Shown: piece after piece, positions 1-54,896 of the stretch
Numbering within the stretch: position 1 is the first letter of the stretch
Layout of the letters: every line of letters starts with the position of its first letter
IMG/VR virus record: IMGVR_UViG_3300037468_000262
Span: 1-64,000 of that record
Source: a virus
Length of the DNA stretch: 64,000 nucleotides
Direction: 5' to 3' (one strand)
Made by a program: the position numbers and the translations under genes
The notes under the pieces: generated by a model
What the model saw: only the letters and a program-made list of their open reading frames with translations
Databases searched by the model: none
What the model was told of the DNA's origin: nothing

Positions 1-1183
1 CATTGGAGCTAAGCTAGTAAGCCTGATTCCTCAATATGGCCGCTGGGACGACCTTGTCGTCCTTGAAGGAACCCTAGTTTGGAATGTTGCACTTGAGGCA
101 ATCAAGGCACAGCTGAACGCTGACTTGAACACCGAAGTTGGCAACTCCGTGTCATTGCTTGCAAAGTGGTTGCCTTCCATCAATGCCTCAAGCAAGGAGT
201 CTAAGCGAGTTGGCCGTCTTATCGCTAAGGCAATGGGCTGGAATGAGCGTCAATACCGCAAGGCTCTGACTGCTCTTAGGACACAAATCAAGATTGTCGA
301 ACAGGCAATGTGTGCCCGTGAGTGGGACGCCATTGATTATAGCAAGTTGCCTTCTCGTGCAGGATTCATGTATCGTAAAGCCTTCGCTAACCGCGACGGC
401 GTCCGTTACCAATCCTACCTGAACGCTGTTCAAAAGGGAGAAGCGAAGATTAATGCTGGTACAATTTACCCCTACGAAATCGTTGACAAGTACCTTTATA
501 AGGGGGAAAGGAGCGATCAAACCCTAAACCTAATGTGGGAGGCTTTGCCGAACTACATGGAAGGTAAGGAATTGAACGGGTTGGTCGTTGCCGACGTTTC
601 AGGTTCTATGGAGATGTACGACGGTATGCCCATGGCAGTATCCATCTCCCTGGCAATGTACATCTCAGAGCGTAACACCGGTATCTGGAAGGATAAGTTC
701 CTCACTTTCTCTGCAACTCCCGAACTGCAAAATGTTACGGGATCTACGCTCTCTCAGAGAATTACAAACCTGTCTCAAGCATCCTGGAGTATGAACACGA
801 ACCTTCAAGCTGTCTTTAACCTTGTGTTGAACACGGCGGTTAAGTACCGTGTCCCTGAAGGAGAAATGCCGCGCAAGCTCATCATTGTCTCCGACATGCA
901 GTTTGACAGCTGCTGCCATGGCGCGTCAGTAACTAACTTTGAAGCCATCCGCATCAAGTACGCCCAAGCTGGATATTCCATGCCGGAACTTGTTTTCTGG
1001 AATGTGAAAGATAGCGGCAACGTACCTATGAAGATGCACGACACCGGTACCTGCCTTGTATCCGGTTGCAGCCCTTCGATCCTGAAGGCTGTTCTTACCG
1101 ACGGAGTTATCACTCCGGTTGGTGTGATGAGGGATGCTGTCTATACCGAAAGGTATGACGCTGTGGGTGCTGTCTTTAACTGA
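1..1183 (+). CDS. DUF2828-family vWA-domain protein (5' partial)
   Basis: The frame is open from base 2, so the gene starts outside the window. Upstream residues reading IPQYGRWDDL and the later DVSGSM motif (near base 595) fit DUF2828, a family with a C-terminal von Willebrand A fold distantly like the Ro60/TROVE proteins. DVSGSM is a MIDAS-type metal site (DxSxS). A second acidic strand, LIIVSDMQFD, lies near base 880. Ro-type proteins bind small RNAs, but no RNA-binding role can be shown here. The TGA stop overlaps the next ATG. Confidence 0.8.
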   Translation, partial: IGAKLVSLIPQYGRWDDLVVLEGTLVWNVALEAIKAQLNADLNTEVGNSVSLLAKWLPSINASSKESKRVGRLIAKAMGWNERQYRKALTALRTQIKIVEQAMCAREWDAIDYSKLPSRAGFMYRKAFANRDGVRYQSYLNAVQKGEAKINAGTIYPYEIVDKYLYKGERSDQTLNLMWEALPNYMEGKELNGLVVADVSGSMEMYDGMPMAVSISLAMYISERNTGIWKDKFLTFSATPELQNVTGSTLSQRITNLSQASWSMNTNLQAVFNLVLNTAVKYRVPEGEMPRKLIIVSDMQFDSCCHGASVTNFEAIRIKYAQAGYSMPELVFWNVKDSGNVPMKMHDTGTCLVSGCSPSILKAVLTDGVITPVGVMRDAVYTERYDAVGAVFN

Positions 1184-1359: not shown

Positions 1360-1441
1360 GCAGACCCGTAAGATGGTTCAGCGATCAAACCCTTTCTTTG
1401 CAACAGAAAAACCAACCATCATGTTTTAATAAAGTTAGCTT

Positions 1442-1466: not shown

Positions 1467-1584
1467 AGGGGAATGGTGCAGTGGTAGCACACGTAATTAA
1501 CGGTTACCTTGTACAAGGTACAGACAGCAATTACAAAAATCCCATCATACGGACGTGACGGAGGTTCGATTCCTTCTTCCCCAA
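1467..1584 (+). tRNA. tRNA-Met(CAT) with a 47-nt insert in the anticodon stem
   Basis: Acceptor strands are AGGGGAA (1467-1473) and TTCCCCA (1577-1583), six pairs plus an A1:A72 mismatch. The D arm is GTGC/GCAC and the T arm has loop TTCGATT. The anticodon stem forms only if 1495-1541 is removed: CGT (1492-1494) plus CC (1542-1543) then pairs with GGACG (1551-1555) around loop ATCATAC, with T33 and anticodon CAT at 1546-1548. No CCA is encoded. The 1:72 mismatch recalls initiator tRNA, but the GGG/CCC anticodon-stem signature of initiators is absent. Confidence 0.8.
1495..1541 (+). other. tRNA intervening sequence I1 (47 nt)
   Basis: The insert sits between tRNA positions 29 and 30. It holds hairpin TACCTT-GTAC-AAGGTA (1505-1520), then CAGA, then CAGCAAT (1525-1531), then an A-rich run to the 3' junction. 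From the end of CAGCAAT to the conserved GGA (1551) is 19 nt, exactly as in I3. It is far too short for a group I or II intron. Boundaries come from restoring the anticodon stem, not from known splice signals. Confidence 0.7.
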
Positions 1585-3809: not shown

Positions 3810-4364
3810 ATGGACACAGCCGAAAGAAAACTCATTGACTTATATAATCTTCTTGCCATTCACCAAAGGGTGGAGGATCCCGATGTTCTTGAAAACATTC
3901 AAACAATTCGTACCGAAATCACCAAGCTACTAAACCATAGCGGCGGCGGAACTAACAATATCAACATTGTTATAGACGATGATGATTGCCCTGAGGAGTG
4001 CCCACCTGGCCTACCAGGGCCACCCGGAGAACCGGGGGAGCCAGGCCCACCAGGGCCACCAGGACCACCGGGTACCTGCTTACACCCTTGCATACTCGTC
4101 TCCGAGGACTATACAGCTACTGACTTCGATTATTACATCGGCGTGAACAGCGAAAAACCAGTGACCGTTACTCTTCTAAGCTACGTAGATAGCTGCACTG
4201 AGTACACAATCAAAGCTGAAATGGGTCCCCCGTTAGGGAACCGTAAAGTGACAATAAAACCCGAGGGGTCAGCTCTTATAGATGGGGATGAGGAATATAT
4301 ATTAACTTCCCCGTATGAAGCAGTCACAGTGCTGTTTCGGGGTGGAAACTGGCACATTGTATGA
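3810..4364 (+). CDS. Collagen-like repeat protein, 184 aa
   Basis: The N-terminal 65 residues are helical and acidic. A Gly-X-Y run of about eight triplets (GLPGPPGEPGEPGPPG and on) occupies residues 67-90, flanked by cysteines (ECPPG, GTCLHPC). A roughly 90-residue beta-rich domain with LLSYVDSCTEYTIK and ending FRGGNWHIV follows. The layout of trimerising helix, collagen stalk and beta head is typical of phage fibre or surface-decoration proteins. Confidence 0.7.
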   Translation: MDTAERKLIDLYNLLAIHQRVEDPDVLENIQTIRTEITKLLNHSGGGTNNINIVIDDDDCPEECPPGLPGPPGEPGEPGPPGPPGPPGTCLHPCILVSEDYTATDFDYYIGVNSEKPVTVTLLSYVDSCTEYTIKAEMGPPLGNRKVTIKPEGSALIDGDEEYILTSPYEAVTVLFRGGNWHIV

Positions 4365-6006: not shown

Positions 6007-6130
6007 CGAAGAGTAGCCAAGTGGATAGGCAGCGGTCATGCAAAAAAGATCACCTAGTTTAGGTGATTCAGCAATACCCCAATACGCTAAAGGAAACCGC
6101 CATACGCAAGTTCGAATCTTGCCTCTTCGA
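6007..6130 (+). tRNA. tRNA with about 52-nt insert; proline-like acceptor end, anticodon unresolved
   Basis: Acceptor CGAAGAG/CTCTTCG pairs fully, the D arm is GCC/GGC and the T arm is GCAAG TTCGAAT CTTGC. Anticodon stem GCGGT (6032-6036) pairs with ACCGC (6096-6100), but 59 nt lie between them instead of 7. C1-G72 with A73 is the bacterial tRNA-Pro pattern, and several cut choices give an AGG or TGG anticodon. Every simple excision leaves A rather than T at position 33, so the mature form is uncertain or the gene is defective. Confidence 0.65.
6037..6095 (+). other. tRNA intervening sequence I2 (about 52 of these 59 nt)
   Basis: AAAAAAG (6042-6048) leads into hairpin ATCACCTA-GTT-TAGGTGAT (6049-6067), then T, then CAGCAAT (6069-6075) and a tail with AAAGGAAAC. 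The order matches I1 and I3, and the tail resembles the orphan copy I4. Exact borders cannot be set from the sequence. Confidence 0.65.
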
Positions 6131-6133
6131 TTG

Positions 6134-6199
6134 TTTCTCTACGAGAAACGTAGATAGTTCAGCAATTTACCCTAACTCAACAAGGAAAACAACTATCTA
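6134..6199 (+). other. Orphan copy of the tRNA-insert element (I4)
   Basis: Just after the second tRNA, TCTACG-AGAAA-CGTAGA (6138-6154) or the alternative TTTCTC-TAC-GAGAAA forms a hairpin. It is followed by CAGCAAT (6160-6166) and a tail with ACCCTAA and AAGGAAA like I2. The core is enclosed by a perfect 9-bp stem, TAGATAGTT (6151-6159) with AACTATCTA (6191-6199). No D or T arm flanks it, so it is not inside a tRNA. It lies in the leader of the gene at 6225. Confidence 0.6.
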
Positions 6200-6224
6200 G
6201 TTTAACTCTGACTTTGTCAACAGA

Positions 6225-6548
6225 ATGAAAGTAAAAGACTTGAAAGAAAGACTGAACGACTTCCCGGATAATATGGAAGTTGTTGTTAGTGCGAATTACA
6301 CTCTGCCTCCTGAAAATGTGCCTCTAACTAAAGTAGAAGGAAAAATTAGCATTAAGGAGGACTTTGTAGCAGTTCTCGAGCCCGAAGACGAGCAGGATCT
6401 TCCGAGCTACTATTACGACAATTGTTTCTATGCGGACCCTAAAAATCAAACTGGTGCGAAACTCCATCCTTGCTATTTTCCCGGTGAGAATCTTCCAAAA
6501 AGAAAAGTGTTGATGTTAGATGTTTATTTAAGCGCAGGTGTGCTCTGA
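6225..6548 (+). CDS. Small phage protein with KxxDLxExLxxFPDxxEV motif, 107 aa
   Basis: The start KVKDLKERLNDFPDNMEVVV is a motif I know from many small phage proteins of unknown function, and recurs in the gene at 40042. The rest is acidic and Tyr-rich. It ends just before the third tRNA. Confidence 0.65.
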   Translation: MKVKDLKERLNDFPDNMEVVVSANYTLPPENVPLTKVEGKISIKEDFVAVLEPEDEQDLPSYYYDNCFYADPKNQTGAKLHPCYFPGENLPKRKVLMLDVYLSAGVL

Positions 6549-6611: not shown

Positions 6612-6726
6612 GGGACCGTAGCTCAACTGGTAGAGCGCTAAAAAAGTTATCTTGACAAAGATACATCAGCAATTAAAAATTCCTATTTTAAAGGAGAGGT
6701 TTCAGGTTCGAGTCCTGCCGGTCCCC
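6612..6726 (+). tRNA. tRNA-Lys(TTT) with a 42-nt insert in the anticodon stem
   Basis: Acceptor GGGACCG/CGGTCCC, D arm GCTC/GAGC and T loop TTCGAGT are clear. Removing 6640-6681 joins CT (6638-6639) to CCT (6682-6684), which pair with AGGAG (6692-6696) around loop ATTTTAA. This restores T33, anticodon TTT (6687-6689) and A37. No CCA is encoded and base 73 is C. Confidence 0.8.
6640..6681 (+). other. tRNA intervening sequence I3 (42 nt)
   Basis: The insert lies between tRNA positions 28 and 29, or one base earlier because a T is ambiguous. It contains AAAAAAG, hairpin TATCTT-GACA-AAGATA (6648-6663), then CAT and CAGCAAT (6667-6673), then an A/T run. The 19-nt spacing to GGA equals that in I1. 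Confidence 0.7.
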
Positions 6727-17693: not shown

Positions 17694-18155
17694 ATGAACG
17701 AACTCGAAGCCTACGTGATGGTCGGTGCCCCTGGCTCCGGCAAGTCAACCCAAGTTTCCAAGCTGGTAGCGTCTCACCCAGATGCCGTTGTGATTTCCGG
17801 TGATGACATCCGCGCTGAACTCTACGGCGACGCAGACGTCCAAGGCAACTACGTCGAAATTCACGACCGGATGCTGGAAATTCTCGAAGAGAATGTCGGC
17901 CGCACCGTGATCATGGATGGCACCCACTACAGGGCAGCTTACCGCAAGGAAGCTATCGATATGCTGAACTCATACGGGTACAACAAAGTTGTTGCGGTAG
18001 TAGTCGACAAACCTCTTGCTGTTTGTTTGCGGCAGAACTCTTTGCGGGACCGTAAAGTTCCCGAGCATGTGATTGAGCTCATGCACAACTCTTTGCAAGC
18101 TTCCCTCAAGAATATTACCAACGAGCCCTTCCACCGCATTGACTTCGTCTACTAA
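17694..18155 (+). CDS. Polynucleotide kinase-like P-loop protein, 153 aa
   Basis: GAPGSGKST at residues 11-19 is the P-loop; SGDDIRAELYGD (about 36-47) and IMDGTHYRAAYRKEAI (about 76-91) match the acceptor-binding DD and lid regions of the Pnkp/T4 Pnk kinase family. That family moves ATP phosphate onto 5'-OH ends of RNA or DNA. At 153 residues it equals an isolated kinase domain. It is 6 nt upstream of a PPP-type phosphatase, the same order as in fused bacterial Pnkp. Confidence 0.75.
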   Translation: MNELEAYVMVGAPGSGKSTQVSKLVASHPDAVVISGDDIRAELYGDADVQGNYVEIHDRMLEILEENVGRTVIMDGTHYRAAYRKEAIDMLNSYGYNKVVAVVVDKPLAVCLRQNSLRDRKVPEHVIELMHNSLQASLKNITNEPFHRIDFVY

Positions 18156-18161
18156 ACTACC

Positions 18162-18881
18162 ATGATCACCTATGATGACAAACTTCAGCCGGGGGACGTA
18201 GTCGCCCTCGGAGACATTCACGGAACCTGGAATCTCTTCGAGCAGTTCTTGGAGTGGGTCGAAGGTAATCAAGCGACCGTTGTCTTACTGGGCGACATGA
18301 TTGACCGTGGAGGCCAAGACTTGGAGGTCTTGAAAGCAACCAAGCAACTGCTGGATGACCCCGAGCATCGCGGACTTCAAGCTTTTTATGCTCTGATGGG
18401 CAACCACGAGAGGATGTTTCTTGACGCCATGTTGGTTGACCCGTATGGTCAAGGTTACCATCTGTGGATTCAAAACGGGGGTAATTTCGATCAGGCACCT
18501 GAGATGGTGAAAGAGCACGCAGCCTGGGTGAAAGAGTTACCGATCTATATGGTAATCGGGGATACAATGTTTGTTCACGGGGGTATTTACCCTGGTCACG
18601 ACCCAGCTAAAGCTGTTGCGGAGAAGCGAGGAGATGCCCTTCTGTGGATGCGCCAACCTTTCCTCACGTTTGGCCCTGAGTTTGAGCGTTGGAACCCTAA
18701 CTTAAAAAGGGTTGTTCACGGTCACACCCCTACAGTTTATGAAGAAGGTGGTCGAGACCGAGTGCCAATTCACAAAGGCGACAGGGTGAACATTGACACC
18801 GGTGCTTACGTTCGTGAGGGGTGCCTCACTGCCTACAACGTAACTCGAAACACTTTTCACCAGTTTATAAAACCTAAATGA
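18162..18881 (+). CDS. PPP-type metallophosphatase, Pnkp phosphatase-like, 239 aa
   Basis: GDIHG (about 17-21), GDMIDRG (about 44-50), GNHE (about 80-83) and VHGHTPTV (about 186) are the metal-binding motifs of calcineurin-like phosphatases. The family includes lambda-type protein phosphatase, ApaH and the central 2',3'-phosphatase of bacterial Pnkp. Adjacency to the kinase favours an RNA/DNA end-healing role; a protein phosphatase remains possible. Confidence 0.8.
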   Translation: MITYDDKLQPGDVVALGDIHGTWNLFEQFLEWVEGNQATVVLLGDMIDRGGQDLEVLKATKQLLDDPEHRGLQAFYALMGNHERMFLDAMLVDPYGQGYHLWIQNGGNFDQAPEMVKEHAAWVKELPIYMVIGDTMFVHGGIYPGHDPAKAVAEKRGDALLWMRQPFLTFGPEFERWNPNLKRVVHGHTPTVYEEGGRDRVPIHKGDRVNIDTGAYVREGCLTAYNVTRNTFHQFIKPK

Positions 18882-18945: not shown

Positions 18946-19599
18946 ATGGACTACTTCGACCTGTACTACTCATACCTTTCCAAGTGTGAAAAGAGTAATT
19001 GGATGAATCTTAGGGACCCTAATCATGACGATATGGAGTGGAATCACACTCTGCCCCAGTGCATATTCAAGGGTCATGGACCAGGTCAGTGGCTAACTAT
19101 GGAGCAACATGCAATTGCTTCGGCGTTGCAGACGTTGGCGTTTGAGCATGACGTGATTTGTGGTTGGCACTGGAAATACTTGCCGGAAGAACTGAGAAAG
19201 AAAACAAAAGAGGTGGTTAGCCGCGTAAAAAGCGAACGCATAACAGGAATAAATAATCACCAATACGGGAAACCTCACACACAAGAAACGAAAGAAAAAA
19301 TAGCAAGAACCCTTTCCAATGGGGCGGCAGACGGTTTCAATCGAAAAGGTAAGCTTCACCCCATGTACGGAAAAAGCCATAATCCCGAGTCGAAAAGAAA
19401 AATCTCTGAATCCATGAGAGGAGATAAAAACCACAATTACGGTAAACAAATGTCTCAAAAGCAGAAAGACGAAATTTCCCTAACGAAAAAGAAAAGGTTT
19501 AAATGTTTAGTTACAGGATTTATTAGCAGTTTTTCGGGTTTATCTAAATACCAGAATAGTAGGAGGATAGACACTTCACTTCGCATTCAAATCAACTAG
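18946..19599 (+). CDS. Free-standing homing endonuclease with NUMOD3 repeats, 217 aa
   Basis: Residues 27-65 (MEWNHTLPQCIF, then LTMEQHAIAS) look like an HNH/His-Me core. The remainder carries three NUMOD3-type DNA-binding repeats, GINNHQYGKPHTQETKEKI, HPMYGKSHNPESKRKIS and NHNYGKQMSQKQKDEIS. Its A-rich base composition differs from the neighbours, consistent with a mobile gene between the phosphatase and the exonuclease. Confidence 0.8.
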   Translation: MDYFDLYYSYLSKCEKSNWMNLRDPNHDDMEWNHTLPQCIFKGHGPGQWLTMEQHAIASALQTLAFEHDVICGWHWKYLPEELRKKTKEVVSRVKSERITGINNHQYGKPHTQETKEKIARTLSNGAADGFNRKGKLHPMYGKSHNPESKRKISESMRGDKNHNYGKQMSQKQKDEISLTKKKRFKCLVTGFISSFSGLSKYQNSRRIDTSLRIQIN

Positions 19600-21878: not shown

Positions 21879-22000
21879 GTCAAACGTTCAGGCTGCTTCG
21901 GCAGCCCGGAAGTAGGTGACAAAGGAACGCATTCGTTCAGTCTTTTTACAGACCGGGATTGTCTCCAAAGGAACGCGCAAAGCAACCCTAGGAGAACACA

Positions 22001-37401: not shown

Positions 37402-38034
37402 ATGGAAGCCTACACCAAGTATCCTCGGACTTTTCACTTCCCGTGGTCCGAAGCTGTCACGTCTGACGACAAGGTTGTTCCTTCTGTCGCCCATTTAGAG
37501 GGCCGCCAAGTGATTGTAACCGAGAAGATGGATGGCGAAAATACGACCATGTATCGGCATCACATTCACGCCCGCAGTCTTGACAGCAAAGGTGGTGAGG
37601 ACCGTGCCTGGGTCAAGCAGTTCTGGGCGTCGATCCGTGGTGAAATCCCTGAAGGGTGGCGAATCTGCGGTGAGAACCTTTGGGCGAAACATTCTGTTTC
37701 CTACACCAACCTTCGGTCATACTTTTACGGGTTTAGCATCTGGGACGCAGATAACCAGGCACTGTCTTGGGAGGATACTGTGGACTACTTTGCAATGTTG
37801 GGCATTACTCCCGTTCCCATGCTTTATTCTGGAGTTTGGGATGAGGTTGTTATCCGCAATTTGTCCAAAAGTCTTAACTTAGTTGAGGCCGAAGGCTATG
37901 TCGTTCGCCTTGCCGATTCCTTTCACTACGACAACTTTAGCACTTCCGTGGCAAAGTTTGTTCGCAAGGGTCATGTTCAGACTGACAAGCACTGGCGATC
38001 ACAGCAGTTTGTCCCCAATGGCCTGGCTACCTGA
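37402..38034 (+). CDS. RNA ligase (covalent nucleotidyltransferase), 210 aa
   Basis: TEKMDGEN (about 40-47) is motif I with the lysine that becomes adenylated. FYGFSIWD (about 110) is motif III/IIIa, EGYVVRL (about 164) motif IV and VAKFVRKGH (about 182) motif V. All five nucleotidyltransferase motifs are in order, and HFPWS before motif I is common in this RNA-ligase group. It seals 5'-phosphate to 3'-OH ends. Same promoter type as the kinase-phosphatase pair at 17694. Confidence 0.85.
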   Translation: MEAYTKYPRTFHFPWSEAVTSDDKVVPSVAHLEGRQVIVTEKMDGENTTMYRHHIHARSLDSKGGEDRAWVKQFWASIRGEIPEGWRICGENLWAKHSVSYTNLRSYFYGFSIWDADNQALSWEDTVDYFAMLGITPVPMLYSGVWDEVVIRNLSKSLNLVEAEGYVVRLADSFHYDNFSTSVAKFVRKGHVQTDKHWRSQQFVPNGLAT

Positions 38035-54051: not shown

Positions 54052-54114
54052 ATGAGTGAGGGTGAAATCATACTTTCAAACAACGGAAGATGGTTTGTTA
54101 CACCTACGTTATAG
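54052..54114 (+). CDS. 20-codon frame at module 13, possible interrupted gene
   Basis: MSEGEIILSNNGRWFVTPTL starts at the predicted +1. The endonuclease ATG begins 13 codons in, so this looks like the stub of a gene cut by insertion of the mobile endonuclease. Confidence 0.35.
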   Translation: MSEGEIILSNNGRWFVTPTL

Positions 54115-54896
54115 TGTTCGAAGACAGTTTCTTTTACATAGGGGTTAGAAAGTGTCCCAAAAACCTCACCCCCTTTACTGACCTGTACTCAGGCTCCCCT
54201 GTGACACACAAGGAAAAGTGGGTGAACACAACTTTCAAAAAGAAAGTTATCAGTATACACGGCACATGGAAAGAAGCCTCTTTCAAGGAAATAGAACTAT
54301 TGAACCACGTTAAATGGAACTCGAACCCTAGATGCCTAAATGAGAATAACGGGGGATGCTTCTCAGAAGAAACATGCTCCAAGGCAGGGAAAATAGGAGG
54401 AAAAACTACTATTGACAAAATGAGAAATGACCCCGATTTCGCTAAGGCTCGTAACAAGAAATTGTCGGAAAGTTTAAAAAGAAGATACAGAGAAAACCCT
54501 GAAGTTTTAGAAAAACAAAGAGTATTGGTTTTGGAAGCTTCAATGAAGTCACTGAAGTCAAGAGAAAGTTTATTAAGAAACAATCCAGATTATTATAAGA
54601 ATAACGGTCTTAAAATTTCTGAGGCTCTGAAGCTGAAAGCATCTGAAGACCCTTCTTTCAGGGAACAGCTGGCTATTAAAGCCAATAAAGCAAGTGAGAC
54701 TTACCGTAAAATGCTTAAAGAGGACCCCGAGTTTAGAGAAAAAGTTAAAGCAGGTAGGGAAAGAGCTGCCCTAAAGATTAAAAATAGTGTTTGGATAACA
54801 AACGGGCAGAAAGACAGAAGAGTAAGTGCAGATCTTCCAATTCCCGACGGATTTAGGAGGGGCAGGTCCAACAACAAGAGAAGGAGTGAACAATGA
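54090..54896 (+). CDS. GIY-YIG-type homing endonuclease, 268 aa
   Basis: CYTYVIVFEDSFFYIGVRKC at residues 3-22 gives a YxY/YIG-like pair and LYSGSP follows; KKKVISIHGTWKEASFKEIE supplies the basic and Glu region. Residues 100-250 are repeated basic helices (RNDPDFAKARNKKLSESLKR, ENPEVLEKQR, EDPEFREKV) that probably wrap DNA. A-rich composition marks it as a mobile gene. Confidence 0.75.
   Translation: MVCYTYVIVFEDSFFYIGVRKCPKNLTPFTDLYSGSPVTHKEKWVNTTFKKKVISIHGTWKEASFKEIELLNHVKWNSNPRCLNENNGGCFSEETCSKAGKIGGKTTIDKMRNDPDFAKARNKKLSESLKRRYRENPEVLEKQRVLVLEASMKSLKSRESLLRNNPDYYKNNGLKISEALKLKASEDPSFREQLAIKANKASETYRKMLKEDPEFREKVKAGRERAALKIKNSVWITNGQKDRRVSADLPIPDGFRRGRSNNKRRSEQ

What the first reader, a model, noticed from the sequence alone, without database searches (positions are those of the whole stretch)
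6134..6199. Orphan copy of the tRNA insert outside any tRNA
The same hairpin-CAGCAAT-AAGGAAA layout occurs in the leader of the gene at 6225, closed by a perfect 9-bp stem (6151-6159 with 6191-6199). No tRNA arms flank it. It is either a mobile copy caught outside a tRNA, a reinserted intron RNA, or a regulatory RNA using the same fold. It helps define the element independently of tRNA context.
Basis: seen in the sequence. Interest (0 to 1): 0.75.

Follow-up and report, generated by a model that had tools for sequence, protein, structure and literature searches.

The report
Stand-alone phage Y-RNA-like Ro60 ligand
The "orphan" is not a stray piece of a tRNA intron: it is most likely one of a large, mostly unrecognised family of small phage and bacterial RNAs that go with a Ro60-like RNA-handling protein made next door, and the odd inserts in this phage's tRNAs are the same module turned inside out.

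Summary
The 9-bp stem and CAGCAAT at 6151-6199 are real. The preceding hairpin (6134-6148) and "AAGGAAA" are not part of a shared layout: the hairpin is a separate spacer and AAGGAAA changes in relatives. The conserved unit is P1 (WAGR...YCUWG) - 0-4 nt - CAGCAA - variable loop - A-rich - P1'. A second copy lies at 1372-1420.

The unit travels with a Ro60-like protein (phrog_850/DUF2828; truncated gene at ~11-1183 here). That protein's predicted structure matches Ro autoantigen over nearly its whole length (Z 20.3). Of loci fetched by the protein alone, 53/65 phage and 50/80 bacterial or archaeal ones carry the unit, far above scrambled motifs. A covariance model hits 14/15 records with the gene and 0/8 without. 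P1 and the inner hairpin covary.

Decisive link: in mycobacteriophages the recognised tRNA-like Y RNA (YrlA) has this stem and CAGCAA core, and phage Aegeus has a minimal orphan-type unit at the same site.

The orphan is best read as a stand-alone Y-RNA-like ligand of the phage Ro60 protein, not a mobile or reinserted intron, nor a leader of gene 6225 (relative L039 lacks that gene). tRNA inserts are the same module circularly permuted into tRNAs. Binding is untested.

The parts
6151..6159 (+). P1, 5' strand of the orphan (TAGATAGTT; the last UU may be the linker)
   Evidence: pairs perfectly with 6191-6199; conserved in L004 and L039; P1 covaries across copies
6160..6166 (+). conserved core CAGCAAT
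   Evidence: invariant CAGC-A across 33-43 aligned copies; 166 of 284 scanned copies read CAGCAAT
6171..6185 (+). weak inner hairpin P2 (CCU 6171-6173 with AGG 6183-6185)
   Evidence: RNAfold; in L004 it is CCC/GGG; in the copy upstream of the Ro60 gene in relatives P2 covaries strongly
6184..6190 (+). A-rich stretch before P1'
   Evidence: A-rich in nearly all copies
6191..6200 (+). P1', 3' strand AACTATCTA plus the conserved following G (YCUWG signature)
   Evidence: TCTA|G, TCTT|G and CCTT|G are the commonest P1' ends
6134..6148 (+). separate spacer hairpin after the tRNA (TTTCTC TAC GAGAAA); not part of the module
   Evidence: compensatory changes in L004 and L039; absent before most other copies
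1372..1420 (+). second orphan unit, GATGGTT-CAGCGAT...AAAAACC-AACCATC, after the Ro60-like gene
   Evidence: R1 model E=7.1e-5
11..1183 (+). Ro60-like protein gene (phrog_850; DUF2828 + DUF7788/vWA), cut off by the start of the record
   Evidence: structure of its close relative in L063 matches Ro autoantigen
1467..1584 (+). tRNA (anticodon CAT, initiator-like) carrying the module: P1 arm TACCTT/AAGGTA 1505-1520, CAGCAAT 1525-1531; insert between tRNA positions 29 and 30
6007..6130 (+). tRNA carrying the module in the anticodon loop: P1 arm ATCACCTA/TAGGTGAT 6049-6067, CAGCAAT 6069-6075
6612..6726 (+). tRNA-Lys(TTT) carrying the module: P1 arm TATCTT/AAGATA 6648-6663, CAGCAAT 6667-6673; intact anticodon arm TTCCT ATTTTAA AGGAG follows
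6225..6548 (+). 107-aa gene of unknown function; its position after the orphan is incidental
   Evidence: no Pfam match; absent between orphan and next tRNA in L039
17694..18881 (+). RNA-repair candidates: P-loop kinase (17694-18155) and calcineurin-like phosphatase (18162-18881)
37402..38034 (+). RNA ligase (PF09414)

Best explanation
The orphan is a stand-alone, minimal Y-RNA-like RNA of the phage's own Ro60-like ribonucleoprotein. SHOWN: it folds as a basal stem P1 formed by its two ends, with a CAGCAA/A-rich internal loop and a small inner hairpin. The same unit recurs beside phrog_850 (Ro60-fold) genes in phages of Cyanobacteria, Actinobacteria, Bacillota and Enterobacteria, and in bacterial genomes. 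The loop can be a plain hairpin, a T-arm, a whole tRNA body or the YrlA tRNA-like domain, and minimal and tRNA-like forms replace each other at one site. The tRNA inserts are the same module permuted, so that P1 becomes a capped arm on a normal-order tRNA. INFERRED: the Ro60-like ring binds P1 plus the CAGCAA loop, as bacterial Rsr is tethered by the basal stem of YrlA. Units with a tRNA or tRNA-like part then tether that cargo, or through it an RNase, to the ring. Minimal units like this one act as ring-gating or titrating ligands and, in the leader of the Ro60 gene, as a feedback site. During infection this would serve tRNA quality control or repair together with the phage kinase, phosphatase and RNA ligase.
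For: Stem and core are conserved at the same place in L004 and L039. Covariation at the homologous site upstream of the Ro60 gene: 98.2% of cells paired, 6 pairs with changes on both sides, score 0.301 vs 0.060 shuffled, 0/500; P1 over 33 copies 0.644 vs 0.253. Unselected test: 32 of 34 CAGC[AG]A sites upstream of the gene have P1 >= 7 WC pairs vs 90/1480 random sites. Gene linkage: 14/18 records found by DNA pattern alone carry phrog_850 vs 2/22 control records. Protein-selected phage loci: 162 hits in 53/65 loci on the gene strand vs 15 on the other, and a mean of 9.2 for permuted cores. Cellular loci: 74 hits in 50/80 vs mean 7.5. Model R1: 14/15 records with the gene, 0/8 without, and 0 hits in 62 control loci. 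Protein: AF2 pLDDT 90.2; VIA Z 20.3 to 1yvp 'Ro autoantigen complexed with RNAs', 410 residues aligned; also phage phiLo Ro60 9l5y and D. radiodurans Rsr 2nvo. Link to a known Y RNA: Rfam YrlA E=1.7e-7 in mycobacteriophage OhShagHennessy lies inside a P1-CAGCAA unit. In Faith1 and Lolly9 the same unit has a T-arm and a covarying P1; in Aegeus the same site holds a minimal 33-nt-loop unit. Permutation: bacterial locus L268 has GTGCCTTG-GC-AAAGGCAC-gga-CAGCAA inside a tRNA and AAGGCGGC-CACAGCAA...GCCGCCTT outside it. Literature: YrlA basal stem tethers Rsr (PMC8394870); Listeria phage CKA15 has an Rsr-like protein next to abundant unannotated RNAs that its authors suggest may be Y RNAs (PMC12282133).
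Against: No binding or expression data for any of these units. The Rfam YrlA match is below the gathering score (39.8 vs 69), and no Rfam family matches the window orphan. CAGCAA is not in the Rfam YrlA consensus, so the contacts would differ from Salmonella YrlA. Units are far more numerous than a single Y RNA gene, and many lie between tRNAs, which would also fit a processing signal. phrog_850 is found only as DUF2828 by sequence; the Ro60 relation rests on a predicted fold and on annotation of relatives.
Confidence: 0.8

Rival explanations
1. RNA-processing signal: the units are stems recognised by an RNase, or are small ribozymes, that cut polycistronic tRNA transcripts apart; the Ro60 link is indirect.
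For: Many units lie between tRNAs; a fixed short core in an internal loop and permuted topologies are also typical of ribozymes.
Against: Units also sit in Ro60-gene leaders and next to Ro60 genes where no tRNA is near (L135, L133, cellular loci). Most FelixO1 tRNAs are arrayed normally without a unit between them. The link is to phrog_850, rare in control phages. YrlA itself has the core.
Confidence: 0.1
2. Cis-regulatory leader: the orphan controls the gene at 6225 (or, elsewhere, only the Ro60 gene by feedback).
For: It lies 25 nt upstream of 6225; in cyanophages a unit ends just before the start codon of the Ro60 gene (L063 2048-2102, ATG 2114).
Against: In L039 the same unit stands between the two tRNAs with no gene after it; many units precede tRNAs, not genes. 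Feedback on the Ro60 gene itself remains possible as a side role.
Confidence: 0.05
3. Mobile copy or reinserted tRNA intron RNA, as first proposed.
For: Shared CAGCAAT core and stem with the tRNA inserts.
Against: Order of the P1 strands is permuted relative to the insert. Phages with ordinary tRNAs have the unit. Copies within a genome have unrelated loops. Site-homologous conservation is found in L004 and L039 rather than empty sites.
Confidence: 0.02

Closest known systems
Bacterial Y RNA YrlA (Rfam RF02553) with Ro60/Rsr
   Same: Basal stem from the two ends, internal loop, encoded next to a Ro60-fold gene; in mycobacteriophages one P1-CAGCAA unit contains the YrlA tRNA-like domain.
   Different: The window orphan has no tRNA-like domain; core is CAGCAA rather than the YrlA consensus; many tandem units per genome; no Rfam match to the orphan itself.
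Y RNAs reported in mycobacteriophages (Chen et al. 2014, as cited in PMC12282133)
   Same: Very likely the tRNA-like units seen here beside 'Ro-like RNA binding protein' genes.
   Different: I could not read that paper; flanking minimal units and tRNA-borne modules are not mentioned in the sources I could read.
Putative Y RNAs of Listeria phage CKA15 (PMC12282133)
   Same: Abundant unannotated RNAs upstream of an Rsr-like gene; the related phage LMTA-34 has three P1-CAGCAA units just upstream of that gene.
   Different: Authors did not define a motif; LMTA-34 also has a ROOL RNA there, which could be part of that signal.
tRNA introns (group I, archaeal/eukaryal)
   Same: Interrupt the anticodon arm of tRNAs (the insert form only).
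   Different: About 45-70 nt, no group I core found by Rfam, insert usually between positions 28/29 or 29/30; module also exists outside tRNAs.

Membership tests
Bacterial Y RNA (broad: RNA ligand of a Ro60-family protein) | Basal stem formed by the 5' and 3' ends with an internal loop | tested here: met
Bacterial Y RNA (broad: RNA ligand of a Ro60-family protein) | Encoded with a Ro60-fold protein | tested here: met
   fold
Bacterial Y RNA (broad: RNA ligand of a Ro60-family protein) | Binds the Ro60-family protein | not testable with these tools
   needs binding assay or CLIP
YrlA (RF02553) | tRNA-like domain (T, D and acceptor-like arms) in the loop | tested here: not met
   loop of the window orphan is 31 nt with no tRNA arms; other units of the same kind do have it
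YrlA (RF02553) | Score at or above the Rfam gathering cut-off | tested here: not met
   no hit for window 6100-6230; mycobacteriophage unit 39.8 bits vs 69
Self-splicing or enzymatic tRNA intron / reinserted intron | Same linear element with clean borders inside and outside tRNAs | tested here: not met
   P1 strands are in swapped order inside tRNAs
Known riboswitch or other Rfam cis-element | Match to an Rfam 15 family | tested here: not met

The most novel reading that the evidence does not exclude
A modular Ro60-docking RNA domain (P1-CAGCAA) is used across phages and bacteria as a plug-in: alone, around a tRNA-like fold, or grafted as an arm into real tRNA genes in circularly permuted order. 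The phage then delivers its own tRNAs, as tRNA-Y RNA chimeras, to a Ro60 ring for protection, repair or storage during infection.
Probability: 0.4. Interest if true: 0.88.

Novelty: new variant of a known kind. Interest (0 to 1): 0.74.

Why it matters
Ro60-family genes occur in at least 666 of 50,697 sequenced phage records (1.3%) and in many gut bacteria, yet what they do in phages is unknown. A short, findable RNA signature beside most such genes gives the field concrete RNA partners to test. The tRNA-borne form explains a set of phage tRNAs that gene finders miscall or report as undetermined (e.g. 'tRNA-Undet' in Synechococcus phage B23). It also suggests an evolutionary route between tRNAs and Y RNAs by circular permutation.

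Tried and rejected
Intron or ribozyme reading of the shared core: rejected once stand-alone units were found with Ro60 genes in phages with ordinary tRNAs. Alternative orphan hairpin TCTACG-AGAAA-CGTAGA: rejected, not kept in L004/L039. AAGGAAA as a conserved element: rejected. Rfam scan of window, orphan and loci: only tRNAs, a glutamine riboswitch, and YrlA (mycobacteriophage), ROOL and drum (Listeria phage). Sequence search of PDB with the protein or its profile did not reach Ro60; only the fold did. Loose DNA pattern scan gave about 100 chance hits, later used as controls. Position-33 test for non-decoding in tRNA-Y chimeras was inconclusive: many have a normal loop (ATNNNAA), some lack U33. 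Literature searches found no description of CAGCAA units or tRNA-borne Y modules; key subscription papers on bacterial Y RNAs are not held. A first structure job without an alignment was superseded by the alignment-based one.

Full report
Observation. The stretch 6151-6199 is a perfect 9-bp stem (TAGATAGTT/AACTATCTA) closing a 31-nt loop that starts CAGCAAT. The hairpin at 6134-6148 lies outside the stem, is present at this site in two relatives with compensatory changes, and is a separate spacer. AAGGAAA varies. R1-model and descriptor scans give one further unit in the window, at 1372-1420, after the gene that begins the record. The window is the first 64 kb of a 70,656-bp IMG/VR virus record. 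Its nearest named relative for that first gene is Synechococcus phage B23 (62%).

The tRNA inserts. Three tRNAs of the window (1467-1584, 6007-6130, 6612-6726) carry 45-70 nt in the anticodon arm. A pattern scan of IMG/VR found the same in at least 18 other phage records. In each insert a capped stem ...YCU(U/A)G-loop-(A/U)AGR... precedes CAGCAA and an A-rich stretch precedes the stem.

Orphans are common. In relatives, units of the orphan form stand between tRNAs, up to five per array, and in the leader of one particular gene. They share P1 ends WAGR/YCUWG, a 0-4-nt linker, CAGCAA and an A-rich end, but their loops differ: plain hairpin, T-arm (TTGGTTCGATTCCAA), or, in bacteria, a whole tRNA body lacking an acceptor stem. 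Stem strands are in the opposite order from the tRNA insert, i.e. the two forms are circular permutations. In the Lachnospiraceae locus L268 both forms stand side by side (GTGCCTTG-GC-AAAGGCAC-gga-CAGCAA inside a tRNA; AAGGCGGC-CACAGCAA...GCCGCCTTG after it).

Structure is selected. On an alignment of the homologous unit upstream of the gene, 98.2% of cells pair, six pairs change on both sides, and the covariation score is 0.301 against 0.060 for shuffles (0/500) and at most 0.061 for slid partners. P1 across 33 copies scores 0.644 vs 0.253. To avoid choosing sites by their pairing, all CAGC[AG]A sites in 260 nt upstream of the gene in cyanophage loci were tested: 32 of 34 have a P1 of 7 or more Watson-Crick pairs, against 90 of 1480 random sites; a few of these (the TCGATGG type) look like chance stems.

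The gene. It is phrog_850 'RNA-binding protein' (Pfam DUF2828 + DUF7788). A predicted structure of the L063 homolog (pLDDT 90.2, 36-sequence alignment) matches the Ro autoantigen over residues 9-465 (VIA Z 20.3, rmsd 3.9, 410 aligned), D. radiodurans Rsr (Z 12.7) and Ro60 of Thermus phage phiLo (Z 13.7); the next best, partial vWA matches score near 10. So the phage encodes a Ro60-fold ring protein. Sequence profiles alone do not reach Ro60.

Linkage. Records picked only by the tRNA-insert pattern carry the gene in 14 of 18 cases, the four misses being 11-40-kb fragments; controls with a chance pattern match carry it in 2 of 22. Conversely, loci picked only by the protein carry P1-CAGCAA on the gene strand in 53 of 65 phage loci (162 hits; 15 on the other strand; permuted cores mean 9.2) and in 50 of 80 cellular loci from Clostridia, Synergistota, Akkermansia, Methanobrevibacter and others (74 hits; mean 7.5). 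Some cellular loci may be prophages. Model R1 hits 14 of 15 phage records with the gene and none of 8 without, and nothing in 550 kb of control loci. Named phages with units beside the gene infect Mycobacterium, Staphylococcus, Listeria, Enterococcus, Salmonella, Bacillus and Synechococcus. In cyanophage arrays a sigma-70-like promoter often places the start of transcription at the 5' end of a unit (17/348 vs 19/9540 random positions).

The known Y RNA is one of these units. In mycobacteriophage OhShagHennessy the Rfam YrlA model matches between two minimal units (E 1.7e-7, below the gathering score). Reading outward, that RNA has its own P1, TGGACTCT-ag-CAGCAAT...AAAATC-GGAGTCCA, enclosing the tRNA-like domain. 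Faith1 and Lolly9 have the same unit with T-arm and changed, still paired P1 (GGACTCC/GGAGTCC, GGACCCC/GGGGTCC). In Aegeus the same middle position holds a unit with a 33-nt loop and no tRNA-like domain. So minimal orphans and tRNA-like Y RNAs are interchangeable forms of one thing.

Interpretation. [quoted passage not shown] Salmonella keeps rsr-yrlBA with RNA-repair genes (PMC7790460). By analogy the orphan is most likely a minimal Y-type ligand of the phage Ro60 ring. This phage also encodes a P-loop kinase, a calcineurin-like phosphatase and an RNA ligase, so a role in tRNA repair or quality control is plausible; that step is inference. In Listeria phage CKA15 an Rsr-like protein lies next to abundant unannotated RNAs, which its authors tentatively call Y RNAs (PMC12282133). 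The related phage LMTA-34 has three P1-CAGCAA units there, but also a ROOL RNA.

What it is not. It is not a mobile or reinserted intron (permuted order, present in phages with ordinary tRNAs, loops unrelated between copies), and not a conserved leader of gene 6225, since L039 has the unit between the same two tRNAs and no gene. Whether the tRNA-borne modules are removed or kept is open: many keep a normal anticodon loop, some do not.

Limits. No binding or expression data. Most phage records are metagenomic fragments. Model E-values are rough. The primary papers on bacterial Y RNAs could not be read, so earlier notice of this motif cannot be excluded.

Noticed in passing
window 1467-1584, 6007-6130, 6612-6726; L268 2708-2833: tRNA genes carrying the Y module as an arm in the anticodon region; missed by default ARAGORN, reported as 'tRNA-Undet' in phage B23. 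Splicing or retention unknown.
   Followed up: partly
L063/L103/L125/L030/L098/L094 arrays: Anticodon loops of the same tRNA body differ strongly between close relatives in sequence and length (ATCCAAA, ATAGGGA, ATCAGTAAA, AACATACAA), some without U33.
   Followed up: partly
L098 5562-5616, L103 3668-3720, L125 3389-3444, L094 6521: Stand-alone units whose loop holds a lone tRNA T-arm (TTGGTTCGATTCCAA).
   Followed up: partly
L132 7461-8012 and 4974-5072: ROOL RNA (88.5 bits, just below gathering) and drum RNA in the tRNA region of Listeria phage LMTA-34, upstream of the Ro60-like gene; may be among the abundant RNAs seen in phage CKA15.
   Followed up: no
window 21883-21933: Glutamine riboswitch (RF01739, 41.3 bits), in keeping with a cyanophage.
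   Followed up: no
window 17694-18155, 18162-18881, 37402-38034: Kinase, calcineurin-like phosphatase and RNA ligase: a possible split RNA-repair set.
   Followed up: partly
L063 2048-2102, L103 5727-5778, L125 1404-1456: A unit ends just before the ribosome-binding region and start codon of the Ro60-like gene, suggesting feedback control.
   Followed up: no
G001 133555-137590: Further R1 hits in the 277-kb relative about 70 kb away from its Ro60-like gene.
   Followed up: no
window 18946-19599 and 54090-54896: NUMOD3-type homing-endonuclease-like ORF (NUMOD3 found at 18946-19599; second ORF judged similar by eye only).
   Followed up: no
window 3810-4364: Collagen-like repeat protein (GPPGPPG).
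   Followed up: no
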